DNA of 64,000 bases from Candidatus Proelusimicrobium volucris (GTDB lineage Bacteria; Elusimicrobiota; Elusimicrobia; Elusimicrobiales; Elusimicrobiaceae), in the NCBI GenBank assembly GCA_944324665.1, contig CALUXD010000002.1, forward strand, positions 1 to 64,000, written 5' to 3'. Below the pieces are notes generated by a model, which saw nothing but the letters and a program-made list of their open reading frames with translations, did no database searches and was not told where the DNA came from. Every line of letters starts with the position of its first letter. Position 1 is the stretch's first letter. Shown here piece after piece: positions 45,153 through 51,447 of this stretch. The translations under genes were made by a program, and so were the position numbers.

Positions 45153-45580
45153 TATTTGTTCTCCTTTTTGACGAAAAGTTTTATTCCGTCTACTTTAAAA
45201 ACTTTAACGTTGTCGCCCTGAGATAGTTTTTCCTCGCAGGCGAGTTCCCATAAATCCCCGTCGTTTTTTGCGTAACATTTACCGGTTTGTGTATTTGTCT
45301 GGCTTACGGTAAGTTCTTTGCCTATTAGAGCCTCCATATTGCTTTTGAAAGCCTGCCCTTTTTTGTTCAGATATTTAAGCACCAGCGGCCTAAGGGTAAA
45401 GAGCAGGATAAATATAGTCGCGGCCACCGCGGCCAGCTGCCAATATGTTCCCAAGCCTATCCAGCTTAAGACTGCGGCAACGAAGCATGCTATCGCAAAG
45501 CAGGTTAGGGAAAAATCCATTGTAAAGATCTCGCCTATAAGCAATACAATGCCCAAGATAACCCAATAATGAGCGGTCAT
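45152..45580 (-). CDS. nfeD: NfeD-like membrane protein
   Basis: The 142-aa protein has three TM helices in the first half ('YWVILGIVLLIGEIFTMDF' and two more) and a C-terminal OB-fold ('LIGKELTVSQTNTQTGKCY' to 'VFKVDGIKLFVKK'). This is the short NfeD type that accompanies stomatin-like proteins. It overlaps the start of qmcA by 1 base. It diverges from the protease gene at 45686. Confidence 0.9.
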   Translation of the reverse strand: MTAHYWVILGIVLLIGEIFTMDFSLTCFAIACFVAAVLSWIGLGTYWQLAAVAATIFILLFTLRPLVLKYLNKKGQAFKSNMEALIGKELTVSQTNTQTGKCYAKNDGDLWELACEEKLSQGDNVKVFKVDGIKLFVKKENK

Positions 45581-45685
45581 AATCCCTCCGAAAAGCGAAA
45601 AAAGTATGAAAAATTATACAAATATTTAATCTTATGCTACAATAAAAATATATTTTTGTATTTTATCCTTGTAGGAGGGCTGTTG

Positions 45686-48600
45686 ATGCTTTTATCCAAA
45701 AAGCAGTTATGTGCGTTTTTAGCCGCAGTTTTTTTAATGCAGCAAAGCGCTTTTGCATCGCCTTTAGAAATGGCTCGGGCTTTGGATGCGCGTCGGTTCC
45801 CGATAGTAAAAACGGATTCCGAAGAGCCCGTTAAACTTGAAAGTTCCGAGTTGGAAAAACTTGAAAAGTTTAACAAGAAGACGGATTCCTCTTGGCAAAT
45901 AAGAATAAACGCCAAGACGAAGAAACCTCGCTCGCTTGTCGGCGGCAGAAGCGTAAAAGTCGGTTCGACCGAGAAAAACGCCTTAAAATTCATCAAAAGC
46001 AACAAGGATTTTTTGGGCGTAGACGAGGACGACCTTAAACTTTTAAGAGCACCTTTAAAGTCTGAAGTCGGCACGCACTACTACTTCAGGCAATACTACA
46101 AGAATTTGCCGGTGGAAAACGCTTACGTAAAAGTAAACGTAGATAAGAGCGGGGCTTTGCTTAACTATCAGTCCACGTATATCCCCAATTTGAATATCGA
46201 CACCAAAGAAAGCATATCTGCTGCCAATGCCGCGGGCGTGGCGGCTCAGGATGCGGGCGGAAAGGCTTTATCCGCCGCGGAAAAAGTTGTTTATGTAATT
46301 CCCGGTACCGGTGAAGCCAAATTGGCTTGGAAGGTGCTTGTCCAAGGCGGAGAAAACGCCCCCGCGAAATGGGACTACTATGTAGACGCTCAGAGCGGTG
46401 CCGTATTAAACAGAATAAGCAAACTGTTATACGCGGCGCGAAACGCACAGTTCTCTATAAACATCAACCCGGTATATCCCAAGGCGCCGGGCATCTCCAC
46501 GCAGACTCTGCCTTTGGAAAATATGTATGTTTATTCCTTTGACGGTTCAGGCAGCCCTCAGGCCCCGCAGCTTACGGACGAAAACGGACAGGTAACCACC
46601 AGCGGCAGAATGTGGGCGACTTTTTCCGGGCCGTATTTCACCGTTACCAATGAGGCTTCTCTGACAAAGTATTATGTGGAAAAAGGTTCGGGCGAAACTT
46701 TCAGCGATAATTTGTGGACGGAATTTTTCAAAGGGCCGACTTGGCAGACTTACAGTGATTGCGATACGGCGGGGTATTATCCGGTATTTTCCTATCCTCT
46801 GATAACCAATCTGAATATCGGTTCGATGAATACTTCCGGCGATATAACCGATAAGAAGTTCCTTTTCTTGGGCAGCAATTTGCCCCAGGCTATGACTTTG
46901 GGCGCTTATATCGGCAGGTTCAACTCTTTAAACGGCCCGCTTATATCCAATTACAGCCCTAGCCAAGTTATGACAATCGGCGCTTATCCTTCAGACTATA
47001 CGCCGGGCGTGAACGATTATTCTATAACTACTTTCAAAAAATTGTGCGTACCGACGAGTACTCCCTCCAGATATACCTCCACCGATACGGCTACTCTTTC
47101 GGTATCTTTGGCTAATGACTACATTCAAACGCCGGAAGCGGTCGCGTTTTACAATTTGAACGCGATGCGCTCGTACTTTGTTGACTTGGCCGGCAGCAAT
47201 TTTAATTTGAACGAACATATCCCTGTAATGGTAAACGCGTCCGGCTCCAAGTACAGCAGTCACGACGACGGCTTGCAAAACGCGTTTTACGATTTGGACG
47301 CCAATGTAATTTTGATTGGTCAGGGCCGCTATGACGTAAGCACTGGCCAATACGTCAACTTTGCGCTTGAAAGCGCGATAGTCCGCCACGAATACGTACA
47401 CGCGGTGGTAAACAAGATTTGGCCGATAATATATTTTGACGAAGGTGCGGCGATATCCGAGGCTATATCGGATTACTTTGCCCTGTCTTCTTTGAAGAAT
47501 GCTTCGGGCCAGCCTTATACCTCTATAATCGGCGCATACGTCAACGGAGAAGGCGAAGGTATGGCGCGCGACTTGGACGGTACGGATTCTTATACGGCGG
47601 AGAAGTGGGTAGCAAACGGCGCTCCTATGGGCCAGCATACAAACAGTTTGTTCCTAAGCCAGGCTTTATGGGATTTGAGAAAGACGGGTTCTTCCGTGTC
47701 AAGCCAAGCCGACAGCTTGGTATGGAACGCTTTGATGTTCTTTCCGGATAGTTTGCTTGAATTTAGGGACGCGATGATAGCCGTTGCTACGGTTAAGGGC
47801 GGTGCGGGCAGTGCTTTAGTCAGCGCGGTTGAGGCGGCTTTTGACGCGCACGGTTTAACGTATGACAATATAATAACCGCCAACGGCGACATATACGAGC
47901 CCAACAACGGCCCAGGTTCCGCGGCGGACGTTGATATAGCCTCTATCGCTAAGAAAGAACTTCAGGCCAAAATAAATCCCGCCAGCGATATGGATTATTA
48001 CAGCATATCTCTGCCTGAGGGCGAATTTAAAGCGGTTCTTACCATGCCCAAGATAAAGGAAAATATGTATATGCCTTTGGGTATGTTATTGCTGGACGCT
48101 GATATGCAAACGGCTGTGGACTTGATACTGCCGCCCGACGTGCCGGAAGATCAACAGGGGCATACGGGCATTACGACCACTTATGAAACTACGGAATTAA
48201 CGTTTAGCGCGCCTTCTTTGCTCAACGGCAATACGGGCCGCTATATTTTGGGCGTATATAAAATGGCGAACGGATATTATCCTTCAACCGTAACGGAAGA
48301 CACCGGTGCGTATAAACTTAATTTCACTTTTGCTTCCGGCAGCAATATCGGCGGGGTTCAAACGCAGGTGGACAGCTTCGACAATGGCCAGACTATAACA
48401 TTCACGGCTCCGTTTGCCACTACCGTGGATAGTGGGCTCAGTACTACTTTGGACGGTTTAGGCCTTGGCGAATGGTCGCCTTCTTCGTACGAATTCTTCC
48501 ATTCGGCGAGGTTGCTGGATTCCGATATGAACCCAATACCGGGCGCGAATACGGTGGACGCGACCTATTTGGATATCCCCAGGAATTTATCTATAAACGA

Positions 48601-49084
48601 CAACACCTTAAGCGGCGAAGTTACTATCCAGAACGGATTTTCAGCGTTGGGATACAACTTGGTGTATTTGCAGATATTCGGCAAACTGCGTTCCAATAAG
48701 GCCAATCAAGATGCCGCCAATACCGAATACCGCGAGAATTACGGCGTTGTATCCTTGGGCATATCCAACCCGATAGTAACAAAATCTACCAGCGGGCAGG
48801 AAGTTTTTATAAGGGATTCGGTGTTTAATCCGATGCAGGGCGGCAAGGTAAAGATGGAGATCGTGCCGAAATCCGACGGTAATATAAAGGTGCAGATTTT
48901 CACCATAGACGGATTGCTTGTTAAAACGATAAAAGACGGCAATGTCCAACGCGATATAACGCAGGTAATCGAGTGGGACGGCCGAAACGGCAACGGCAAT
49001 ATAGTTGCCAGCGGCGTATATCTGCTGCGCGTAGACGGCGCGGGGATAGACCGGAAGCTTAAGAAAATAGTGGTGGTGAAATAA
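45686..49084 (+). CDS. Secreted thermolysin-like metalloprotease with PPC and FlgD-type Ig C-terminal domains
   Basis: The 1132-aa protein has a signal peptide (about 1-25), an FTP/PepSY-type propeptide (about 50-230) and a thermolysin-fold catalytic domain with 'RHEYVHAV' (zinc ligands His568 and His572, base Glu569). The third ligand is Glu592 in 'GAAISEAISDYF', close to the M4 motif. A PPC-like domain ('EPNNGPGSAADVDIAS') follows, and a FlgD-type Ig fold closes the chain ('VKTIKDGN..' to 'WDGRNGNGNIVASGVYLLRV'). It is presumably exported and activated by propeptide removal. The start at 45686 has GTAGGAGGG upstream; an upstream in-frame ATG at 45569 would bury the signal peptide. A PorV-like gene follows after 1 base. 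Confidence 0.88.
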   Translation: MLLSKKQLCAFLAAVFLMQQSAFASPLEMARALDARRFPIVKTDSEEPVKLESSELEKLEKFNKKTDSSWQIRINAKTKKPRSLVGGRSVKVGSTEKNALKFIKSNKDFLGVDEDDLKLLRAPLKSEVGTHYYFRQYYKNLPVENAYVKVNVDKSGALLNYQSTYIPNLNIDTKESISAANAAGVAAQDAGGKALSAAEKVVYVIPGTGEAKLAWKVLVQGGENAPAKWDYYVDAQSGAVLNRISKLLYAARNAQFSININPVYPKAPGISTQTLPLENMYVYSFDGSGSPQAPQLTDENGQVTTSGRMWATFSGPYFTVTNEASLTKYYVEKGSGETFSDNLWTEFFKGPTWQTYSDCDTAGYYPVFSYPLITNLNIGSMNTSGDITDKKFLFLGSNLPQAMTLGAYIGRFNSLNGPLISNYSPSQVMTIGAYPSDYTPGVNDYSITTFKKLCVPTSTPSRYTSTDTATLSVSLANDYIQTPEAVAFYNLNAMRSYFVDLAGSNFNLNEHIPVMVNASGSKYSSHDDGLQNAFYDLDANVILIGQGRYDVSTGQYVNFALESAIVRHEYVHAVVNKIWPIIYFDEGAAISEAISDYFALSSLKNASGQPYTSIIGAYVNGEGEGMARDLDGTDSYTAEKWVANGAPMGQHTNSLFLSQALWDLRKTGSSVSSQADSLVWNALMFFPDSLLEFRDAMIAVATVKGGAGSALVSAVEAAFDAHGLTYDNIITANGDIYEPNNGPGSAADVDIASIAKKELQAKINPASDMDYYSISLPEGEFKAVLTMPKIKENMYMPLGMLLLDADMQTAVDLILPPDVPEDQQGHTGITTTYETTELTFSAPSLLNGNTGRYILGVYKMANGYYPSTVTEDTGAYKLNFTFASGSNIGGVQTQVDSFDNGQTITFTAPFATTVDSGLSTTLDGLGLGEWSPSSYEFFHSARLLDSDMNPIPGANTVDATYLDIPRNLSINDNTLSGEVTIQNGFSALGYNLVYLQIFGKLRSNKANQDAANTEYRENYGVVSLGISNPIVTKSTSGQEVFIRDSVFNPMQGGKVKMEIVPKSDGNIKVQIFTIDGLLVKTIKDGNVQRDITQVIEWDGRNGNGNIVASGVYLLRVDGAGIDRKLKKIVVVK

Positions 49085-49085
49085 T

Positions 49086-50189
49086 ATGAGAAATATAAAC
49101 AAATATTTTGTTTCCTTGGTTTTTACCGCCGTTTTGGCGGCTTCCGCATACGCACAGGATGCTGGCCGTACGGCTTTGCCTTTCCTTAAAATGGATATGG
49201 GCGCGCGTTATTACGGTATGGCGGGCGCGGCTACGGCGTATGCCGACGATGTTACCGGTATGACGTTCTATAACCCGGCGGCTTTGGGTATGGTTGAATC
49301 GTTCCAGCTTGCGGGTACGGTATCGGAAGCGCAGCTGGATATGAAGTACCATTACGGCGGTTTGGCTTTACCCGTAGGGTTTTTGAGCATATTCGGCAAT
49401 AATCCTTTGAACATCGCCGTTTCCGGCTATATGTTCGATAAGGGAAATACGGACGATATTTACAGCAGATCCATCGGCGATGATTGGTCGTTCACGTTCA
49501 GCATAGGCGAACATATCGGCACTACTCCGTGGGAAGTTTTCGGATCTTCGGCCGATTTGGAACATTACTTTGGTATTAGCGGTAAATATCTTCGCTCCGA
49601 ACTTGCAAAACCGGTGGAAGGCAACGTCACCGGCGACGCCTTCGCTTTTGACGCGGGCTATACGGCGGTGTTGGATAAACATTTCGGCGTCGGTGTAGCT
49701 ATCAAGAACTTGGGGACGGACATAAAATATATAGAAGAATCCGATCCTCTTCCCGCGACATTGTCTGCGGGTATGTTCTTCGTGCCGGTAGACGTTGAAA
49801 ATATCTATTGGGCCGTCAGCGGCGATTTTATCGCTTACTTAAAAGAGAAAGAGAACAGAGTCCGCATCGGTACGGAGATGTATCTGTTCGATTTATTGGC
49901 GGTTCGCGGCGGCGTAAAGCTGATGGAGGAAATACGTGAAGAATGGAGCCTAGGTTTCGGCCTTAAGCTGTTCGGTTTTGAAATTGACGTGGGCACCATA
50001 TTGAACCCTCAGCTTAACGACGATAAAGTCTATCAGGTGAGTTTGGCCTATAAGTTCCCCGTTAAGAAAGAGGATTCTTACAGCGCGAAGGAAGACAATC
50101 GCAACGATTATAAAGAGTACAAAAAGAAGCAGGAGGAAAGCGCTTTTGAAAGAGCTCAGCGCAACTCCAATCCTTTGATATACCAATAA
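49086..50189 (+). CDS. PorV/PorQ-like outer-membrane barrel, second copy
   Basis: The 367-aa protein has a signal peptide (about 1-23, ending AYAQ) and the PorV signature 'LPFLKMDMGARYYGMAGAAT' followed by 'FYNPAAL'. Repeated amphipathic strands and a charged Lys/Glu tail follow; it ends in PLIYQ. It is 1 base downstream of the secreted protease, so the two are coupled. In Bacteroidota PorV shuttles CTD-bearing cargo in the type IX system. Whether such a system exists here is not shown in this window. Confidence 0.8.
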   Translation: MRNINKYFVSLVFTAVLAASAYAQDAGRTALPFLKMDMGARYYGMAGAATAYADDVTGMTFYNPAALGMVESFQLAGTVSEAQLDMKYHYGGLALPVGFLSIFGNNPLNIAVSGYMFDKGNTDDIYSRSIGDDWSFTFSIGEHIGTTPWEVFGSSADLEHYFGISGKYLRSELAKPVEGNVTGDAFAFDAGYTAVLDKHFGVGVAIKNLGTDIKYIEESDPLPATLSAGMFFVPVDVENIYWAVSGDFIAYLKEKENRVRIGTEMYLFDLLAVRGGVKLMEEIREEWSLGFGLKLFGFEIDVGTILNPQLNDDKVYQVSLAYKFPVKKEDSYSAKEDNRNDYKEYKKKQEESAFERAQRNSNPLIYQ

Positions 50190-50427: not shown

Positions 50428-50455
50428 TTGACTGTTTTTTTTTTTTTGATAAATT
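50428..50455 (+). promoter_or_regulatory. Promoter with T13 tract in the spacer (phase-variable candidate)
   Basis: TTGACT at 50428-50433 is followed by G, thirteen T (50435-50447), GA and TAAATT at 50450-50455. Spacing is 16 bases. Adding one T would give the optimal 17. Slippage in such a tract would change the spacing and thus promoter strength. Confidence 0.55.
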
Positions 50456-50545
50456 TTACTCATCTTCTTGGCAGGCGTTTCTATGATTGCCGTAAAATGC
50501 TCAAAAATATTTTTATGGACGTTTGACGGGAGAAAGGAGGAGAAA

Positions 50546-51367
50546 ATGGTTGGTTTAAGAAGAATCGCTATATGTTTTTTATTTGTTTTGGCATTCTTAG
50601 TTATTCCGGCAGCAGAAGGTATATGTCTTGAACTGTTTTGCCGGACCGGATATAAACAATGCTGTGTTAACGGTGTTGAGAAGTGCGTAGAGGATACAGG
50701 GCAGCTTTGTATCGTGAATTGTGGGGGGGGGATTTTGCCTCCGATAGTTGATAATTGTACGGTCGGCAATGTTGAATATAAACCTTCCGGCACTTGCGGT
50801 ACGATAAGCAGAACATGCTGCATTGGCAAAACCTGGAGCGGCTGGGGAGAATCTTGCCCGAAGCCTTGCGACGTCGTCGTAAAGCCGGCGACTACGCAGT
50901 TTTGCACAGCTTCCAACGGGAAGAAGGGGACGCAAACCCGCAGCGTAACTTGTGACGGCGATACCGGCGAATGGGTAACGGGAAGCTGGGGGACTTGTGT
51001 TGCACCCGATTGCACAGTCGGGGAGACTAGAACTTGCCCCAGTAATTCAAAACAAGTTCAGGTATGTACTTCTTCAGGTAAGTGGAGCACATCTTGCCAG
51101 TGTGCCAATGAAGGCAACGGAACGGTTTATTGTCAGGGTATGAGATTGACGACTTCACAAGCTAATAGTTGTATGCACGGCATATGGTCTACGGAAACAT
51201 GCAGCGGTATTTGTTGCTGTCCGGAGGATACCCCTAAGCTAATGAACAACGGTTATCCCGGTTGTTGGGGGACTAGTACTTCAGGGAAATTTCCAACTAC
51301 CGGTTGGCAATATGCCTGTTCATGTCAAAGGCCCGGCTACTCAGATGGAATGTTGCCTATGTTATAA
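50546..51367 (+). CDS. Secreted cysteine-rich protein with TSP1-like repeats
   Basis: The 273-aa protein has a signal peptide (about 1-26) and more than 30 Cys. Segments such as 'KTWSGWGESCPKPC', 'TGEWVTGSWGTC' and 'SSGKWSTSCQC' resemble thrombospondin type-1-like disulphide modules. The ATG at 50546 has a textbook AAAGGAGG upstream; an in-frame start at 50468 would hide the signal peptide. Codons 60-62 are a G9 tract (50723-50731): loss or gain of one G gives a stop within about ten codons. It is probably a surface or secreted factor that can be switched. Confidence 0.75.
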   Translation: MVGLRRIAICFLFVLAFLVIPAAEGICLELFCRTGYKQCCVNGVEKCVEDTGQLCIVNCGGGILPPIVDNCTVGNVEYKPSGTCGTISRTCCIGKTWSGWGESCPKPCDVVVKPATTQFCTASNGKKGTQTRSVTCDGDTGEWVTGSWGTCVAPDCTVGETRTCPSNSKQVQVCTSSGKWSTSCQCANEGNGTVYCQGMRLTTSQANSCMHGIWSTETCSGICCCPEDTPKLMNNGYPGCWGTSTSGKFPTTGWQYACSCQRPGYSDGMLPML

Positions 51368-51417
51368 ATAAAGTCCGTTAATAAGTTTTATAGAGAGAAG
51401 CTCTCTCTAACTAACCG

Positions 51418-51447
51418 CCCCGCCGTTAAAAAAACGGCGGGGTTTTT
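51418..51447 (+). terminator. Terminator of the Cys-rich gene
   Basis: CCCCGCCGTT/AACGGCGGGG, a 10-bp stem with an A-rich loop, is followed by TTTTT. A second small hairpin (AGAGAG/CTCTCT) lies just before it, at about 51392-51408. Confidence 0.93.

What the first reader, a model, noticed from the sequence alone, without database searches (positions are those of the whole stretch)
50428..50731. Doubly phase-variable Cys-rich secreted protein
T13 lies between -35 TTGACT and -10 TAAATT (spacing 16; one more T gives 17), and G9 lies in codons 60-62. Loss of one G leads to TAG and gain of one G to TGA within about ten codons. Each tract alone is a known form of phase-variation switch; both together on one surface-type gene suggest strong selection for variation, perhaps immune or phage evasion.
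Basis: partly seen in the sequence, partly recalled or inferred. Interest (0 to 1): 0.7.

Follow-up and report, generated by a model that had tools for sequence, protein, structure and literature searches.

The report
Slippery poly-T promoters driving surface genes
A run of 13 Ts inside the promoter of a secreted gene turns out to be one of a large set of look-alike promoters in a family of gut bacteria, nearly all in front of pilus or secreted-protein genes, and it probably lets the cells vary those proteins at random; the second run, of Gs inside the gene, looks incidental.

Summary
In detail: TTGACT-G-T13-GA-TAAATT (spacer 16) precedes a 273-aa Cys-rich exported protein, and G9 fills codons 60-62. 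The T tract belongs to something larger. All 11 T>=10 tracts of this 1.5-Mb genome lie in one element, TTGACT-G(G)-T10..14-GATAAATTT. A related pattern occurs in 39 of 52 sampled genomes of its family (Elusimicrobiales; up to 118 matches each) and hardly elsewhere in the phylum (10 of 146 genomes, 1-3 matches). Of 195 scorable elements, 140 precede pilin-like and 47 signal-peptide genes. Three near-identical pilin promoters of this genome carry T10, T12 and T14; T runs shorten when other bases lengthen the spacer; one congener has poly-G in the same position. Best explanation: many independent slipped-strand promoter switches or tuners, working like Mycoplasma vlp or Neisseria porA/opc. Expression and strain-level variation could not be tested, and one species shows uniform T12 (20 of 20 listed), so a structural T-spacer promoter remains a rival. 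The G9 is absent from the only close orthologue and no other gene of the set has G>=8: the double switch is not supported.

The parts
50428..50433 (+). -35 hexamer TTGACT
   Evidence: invariant TTGAC in the element family
50435..50447 (+). T13 tract in the promoter spacer (spacer 16 with G 50434 and GA 50448-50449)
50450..50455 (+). -10 hexamer TAAATT; family variants keep T1, A2, A4 and T6
50535..50540 (+). Shine-Dalgarno-like AGGAGG, 5 nt before the ATG
50546..51367 (+). gene for a 273-aa Cys-rich (11%) exported protein with N-terminal signal peptide; no Pfam or NCBIfam match
50723..50731 (+). G9 tract, codons 60-62; not conserved, probably incidental
51417..51443 (+). predicted intrinsic terminator after the gene

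Best explanation
The T13 is the spacer of a sigma-70-type promoter that belongs to a family of promoters shared by type IV pilin-like and Cys-rich exported-protein genes in Elusimicrobiales gut bacteria. Shown: the element, its genomic and phylogenetic spread, its target genes, tract-length differences between near-identical copies, spacing compensation, and a T-to-G swap of the tract in one species. Inferred: replication slippage in the homopolymer changes the -35/-10 distance, so that each gene is stochastically and reversibly turned up, down or off, each promoter on its own; about 16-17 bp is probably the active spacing and 13-14 weak or off. Cells of one clone would then carry different sets of pilins and secreted proteins. 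The G9 in the coding region is not part of the mechanism.
For: All 11 T>=10 tracts of the genome lie in the element. It is widespread in the family and near-absent outside, reversed control 0 in 52 of 52. 187 of 195 scorable elements precede pilin-like or signal-peptide genes. Near-identical promoters T10/T12/T14; L075 and L083 differ by 2 Ts with 2 mismatches in 47 bases upstream and the first downstream mismatch after 493 bases. 6 of 8 near-identical pairs (4 of 6 groups) differ in length. Spacing compensation (orthologues GG-T12 and G-T13). Poly-G in the same place in G009. About 75 of 78 spacers in the family are uninterrupted T runs although the pattern allowed any spacer.
Against: 61% of elements share one spacing, 16 (127 of 207); G134 shows one length in 20 of 20 listed elements of 87; 3 of 4 orthologous pairs of G000 and G007 keep their spacer; one class in G014 has spacers of 19-20. 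No expression, read-level or strain-level data. Any long T run slips, so length differences alone do not show function. MAG homopolymer lengths may be wrong.
Confidence: 0.6

Rival explanations
1. A co-regulated promoter class with a structural T-tract spacer: rigid T-tract DNA of a preferred length sets promoter strength or is read by a regulator or a special sigma factor; length differences are tolerated noise, not a switch.
For: Strong mode at spacing 16; uniform T12 in 20 of 20 listed elements of G134; further shared sequence such as CGTACG upstream in 14 of 26 TTGACTG-type elements and a fixed ATG position in TTGACTC-type pilins.
Against: Poly-G replaces poly-T in G009; spacers from 12 to 18 occur, and three near-identical promoters of one genome have spacers 13, 15 and 17.
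Confidence: 0.3
2. A double switch in this gene: promoter T13 plus coding G9.
For: The frame consequences are right; G9 is the longest G run of the genome, and the 11 genes behind the element are only about 0.6% of it (my arithmetic); a promoter tract and a coding tract on one gene have a precedent in Helicobacter pylori sabA (PMC2715451, start of abstract in listing).
Against: Absent from the G007 orthologue; no other gene of 187 behind the element has a G or C run of 8 or more.
Confidence: 0.1
3. Assembly or sequencing error in homopolymers, without biology.
For: These are mostly MAG assemblies and homopolymers are error-prone; one element of G207 has NN inside its T run.
Against: Existence and placement of the tracts agree over dozens of separately assembled genomes, with reversed-pattern controls at 0 in the family.
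Confidence: 0.03

Closest known systems
Mycoplasma hyorhinis vlp promoters
   Same: A family of surface-protein genes, each with its own promoter holding a homopolymer whose length sets expression (PMC10502178, passage).
   Different: There poly-A in a handful of lipoprotein genes; here poly-T (poly-G in one species), tens to over a hundred matches per genome, pilin and Cys-rich genes, another phylum; switching not demonstrated here.
Neisseria porA, fetA and opc promoters
   Same: Unstable homopolymer between the -10 and -35 elements (PMC2791445, passage).
   Different: Single genes there; here one element family shared by many genes and many species.
Helicobacter pylori sabA
   Different: The coding tract is not conserved here.

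Membership tests
Homopolymer-spacer phase-variable promoters (porA/opc/vlp type) | homopolymer between -35 and -10 | tested here: met
   same in 11 of 11 elements of the genome
Homopolymer-spacer phase-variable promoters (porA/opc/vlp type) | tract length varies between otherwise equal copies | tested here: met
   T10/T12/T14 in near-identical paralogous promoters; 6 of 8 pairs differ. Met between paralogues only.
Homopolymer-spacer phase-variable promoters (porA/opc/vlp type) | length varies between strains or cells of one species, reversibly | not testable with these tools
   one genome per species held, no reads
Homopolymer-spacer phase-variable promoters (porA/opc/vlp type) | expression follows tract length | not testable with these tools
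   no expression data
Homopolymer-spacer phase-variable promoters (porA/opc/vlp type) | genes encode surface or secreted products | tested here: inconclusive
   187 of 195 by simple sequence rules (pilin N-terminus or signal peptide); location not shown
Coding-tract (translational) phase variation, G9 | one-base change gives an early stop | tested here: met
Coding-tract (translational) phase variation, G9 | tract kept, with varying length, in orthologues or paralogues | tested here: not met
   absent in the G007 orthologue; no G or C run of 8 or more in the other 186 genes
Known Cys-rich domain families (the 273-aa protein) | profile or fold match | tested here: inconclusive
   no Pfam or NCBIfam match; model mean pLDDT 64.4; best Foldseek E 0.03, fibronectin type I modules; best VIA-align Z 3.2

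The most novel reading that the evidence does not exclude
Members of one family of gut Elusimicrobiales carry a genome-wide contingency regulon of tens to over a hundred independently slipping promoters that diversify pilins and Cys-rich secreted proteins cell by cell. The tract base can be swapped (T to G) while its position is kept, and in one genus the promoters drive apparently leaderless pilin mRNAs, so that promoter spacing is the main switch left.
Probability: 0.35. Interest if true: 0.8.

Novelty: new variant of a known kind. Interest (0 to 1): 0.62.

Why it matters
If the tracts slip, these little-known gut bacteria would hold a very large promoter-type set of phase-variable genes, and the combinatorial state of their pilus and secreted-protein repertoire could be read straight from tract lengths in metagenomes. 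It also offers many natural replicates of one promoter with different spacers. I found nothing in print on it in the searches made (listings only, open-licence papers only).

Tried and rejected
Rejected: chance or low complexity. Rejected as a family feature: the coding G9. Loss of mismatch repair as the cause: MutS found in 14 of 14 genomes; MutL was not searched. Phage carriage: no match of the promoter pattern in viral contigs and no tblastn match of the protein in phage records. Fold of the protein: no clear relative, only weak resemblance to fibronectin type I and other small disulphide modules.

Limits: signal-peptide and pilin calls come from simple rules of mine; a first caller mis-started many pilins and was redone. 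Of the 8 near-identical pairs 3 come from one trio. Loci L009-L038 were found through the protein, so the 187 of 195 is partly seeded; most elements came from promoter patterns alone. The 195 leaves out 12 elements cut by contig ends. Listings were truncated by the tool, so per-genome length tallies use listed rows only. Papers: only listings and the passages named were seen; the 2009 Elusimicrobium minutum genome paper was not held.

Full report
What is there. The window lies in a 1,496,100-base, 4-contig genome. At 50428-50455 stands TTGACT-G-T13-GA-TAAATT, spacer 16, followed by a leader of about 85 nt, AGGAGG and a 273-aa ORF from ATG 50546 to 51367, with a predicted terminator at 51417-51443.

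The T tract is one of a set. T>=10 occurs at 11 places in the genome, on either strand. All 11 have the same context, TTGACT-G or GG-T10..14-GATAAATTT, upstream of a gene. Ten of the 11 are T12-T14; runs of exactly 8 T number 98, so the long tracts form a separate group and are not the tail of a decaying distribution. The 11 spacers are 13 (1), 15 (3), 16 (5) and 17 (2).

Spread. The pattern TTGACN{1,5}T10N{0,7}TANNNT matches in 39 of 52 genomes of the window's family and in 10 of 146 other genomes of the phylum (1 to 3 matches each); the reversed-pattern control gives 0 in all 52. Counts reach 47 in G014, 87 in G134 and 118 in G026, with some double counting of overlapping matches. NCBI places Elusimicrobiales in the phylum Elusimicrobiota. 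G018, a single contig of 1,643,562 bases with 76 pilin matches, has none; from memory that length is that of Elusimicrobium minutum Pei191, which would explain why the element was not met in a cultured strain.

Genes behind it. I collected 207 distinct GATA-type elements. Twelve are cut by contig ends. Of the other 195, 140 precede a type IV pilin-like N-terminus, 41 a signal-peptide protein with at least 6% Cys and 6 another signal-peptide protein. Of the remaining 8, four were called without signal peptide (L142, L229 and L256 look by eye like exported or pilin genes cut or mis-started) and four had no gene called (L187 and L250 look like chance matches). The window gene is of the Cys-rich class, whose members share a stretch QYKP.G.C.T..RTCCS.G.WS.W...C; four members tried match no NCBIfam model and the window protein no Pfam model.

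Why spacing matters. In 127 of 207 elements the distance between hexamers is 16; 36 have 15, 19 have 17, and the range is 12-18. When more non-T bases follow the -35, the T run is shorter: mean 12.57, 11.70 and 11.20 for 1, 2 and 3 such bases, Spearman -0.36, p 8e-8. Other species reach 16 with other letters: in listed rows, TTGACA-TCG-T11-GC-TACATT (G026), TTGACC-CG-T12-CT-TACAAT (G032) and TTGACG-CG-T12-GA-TATTCT (G134). The orthologues L076 (G000) and L201 (G007), 97% identical in protein, have GG-T12 and G-T13. The -10 is TAAATT in most elements, and most variants keep T1, A2, A4 and T6.

Why the homopolymer matters. Under a pattern that let the spacer be any 12-22 bases, 78 hits fell in the family and about 75 were uninterrupted T runs. 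In G009 the same place holds poly-G, G7 to G16 in 15 listed elements, before pilin genes in the three looked at. A requirement for T-tract DNA, or for a protein that reads T, would not predict this.

Evidence for length change. Three pilin cassettes of G000 (L083, L075, L080) have T10, T12 and T14 with 2-3 differences in 217 flanking bases. L075 and L083 have 2 mismatches in 47 bases upstream and their first downstream mismatch after 493 bases. Over the 207 elements, 8 pairs are at least 88% alike in the flanks and 6 of them differ in length; counted as groups, 4 of 6. Two random elements would differ 61% of the time (my arithmetic on the counts), so close relatives differ about as often as strangers: length has lost memory faster than the flanks. 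In G003, L352 and L362 have T12 and T18 with similar flanks.

Evidence against, or not fitting. G134 shows one length in 20 of 20 listed elements of 87, so in that species length is held. G032 shows 11, 4 and 2 of 17 at spacers 16, 15 and 14. Three of four orthologous pairs of G000 and G007 keep their spacer; four pairs are too few to say more. In G014 one class (TTGACAACG-T15 or T16-CTACAAT) has spacers of 19-20. MutS is present in 14 of 14 genomes tried. MAG consensus lengths can be wrong, and one element of G207 has NN inside its T run. No expression or population data were available.

Other conserved sequence. In TTGACTG-type elements CGTACG stands within 70 bp upstream in 14 of 26 (under 1 expected from shuffles), and in 8 of 60 of the TTGACTTG type (0.6 expected); the window's own copy has CCGTCGTTAC instead. 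In TTGACTC-type elements the first ATG lies 14 bases after the G of GATAAATTT in 81 of 89 pilin cases, and it is in frame with the pilin motif in 78: the start codon is where transcription should begin, so these mRNAs are probably leaderless (inference). Both facts show that the promoters are a coherent class, perhaps with a common regulator, which keeps the structural rival alive.

The G9. It is the longest G run of the genome. The G007 orthologue reads TGTTCCGGATTTATA there. Among 187 genes behind the element (114 kb) no other has a G or C run of 8 or more. Its chance of falling in one of the 11 genes is small (they are about 0.6% of the genome), so a private switch of this strain is not excluded, but nothing supports it.

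How it most likely works. Slippage in the T run changes the -35/-10 distance one base at a time; RNA polymerase binds best near 16-17; each gene thus moves between levels, or on and off, independently of the others. The precedents are porA, fetA and opc, whose unstable homopolymers lie between -10 and -35 (PMC2791445, passage), and the vlp genes, each with a homopolymer in its promoter region (PMC10502178, passage). By this reading the window gene at spacer 16 is on or nearly so, and the T10 pilin (spacer 13) is off. These states are predictions.

Verdict. Real, more general than reported, and of a known kind in a new place and number. The double-switch claim is not supported; the promoter claim is supported by comparative evidence and awaits reads or reporters.

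Noticed in passing
TTGACTC-type elements, e.g. L258, L263, L268: Pilin genes whose ATG lies a fixed 14 bases after the G of GATAAATTT (81 of 89), so probably leaderless mRNAs; the -10 also forms a palindrome with the first codons (GATAAATTTTG...CAAAATTTATC), which could be an operator.
   Followed up: partly
L381, L396, L336 (G009); L379 (G008): Poly-G (G7-G16) in place of poly-T between -35 and -10; before pilin genes in the three G009 loci looked at, no pilin seen behind L379.
   Followed up: partly
L074, L075, L080, L081, L083 and others, about 35 bp upstream of the -35: Shared palindrome-like motif GTCGTACGTCGAGG, a candidate regulator site.
   Followed up: partly
genomes G003, G008, G012, G014, G015, G018: Very many type IV pilin-like genes (72 to 112 PF07963 matches per 1.1-1.6 Mb genome, against 3-11 in the sister family), some with no T-tract promoter found.
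   Followed up: no
window 45569-50189: Thermolysin-like secreted metallopeptidase with a FlgD-like C-terminal domain, followed by an outer-membrane FadL/PorV-like protein, just upstream of the finding.
   Followed up: no
G000:C1:366742-366767 (L039, L040): Two G8 runs facing each other on opposite strands, 10 bases apart.
   Followed up: no
L075 and L083 (G000): A pilin cassette duplicated almost exactly at two distant places, from just upstream of the promoter into the gene, with divergence near the 3' end and likeness again behind it; suggests recent copying or gene conversion.
   Followed up: partly
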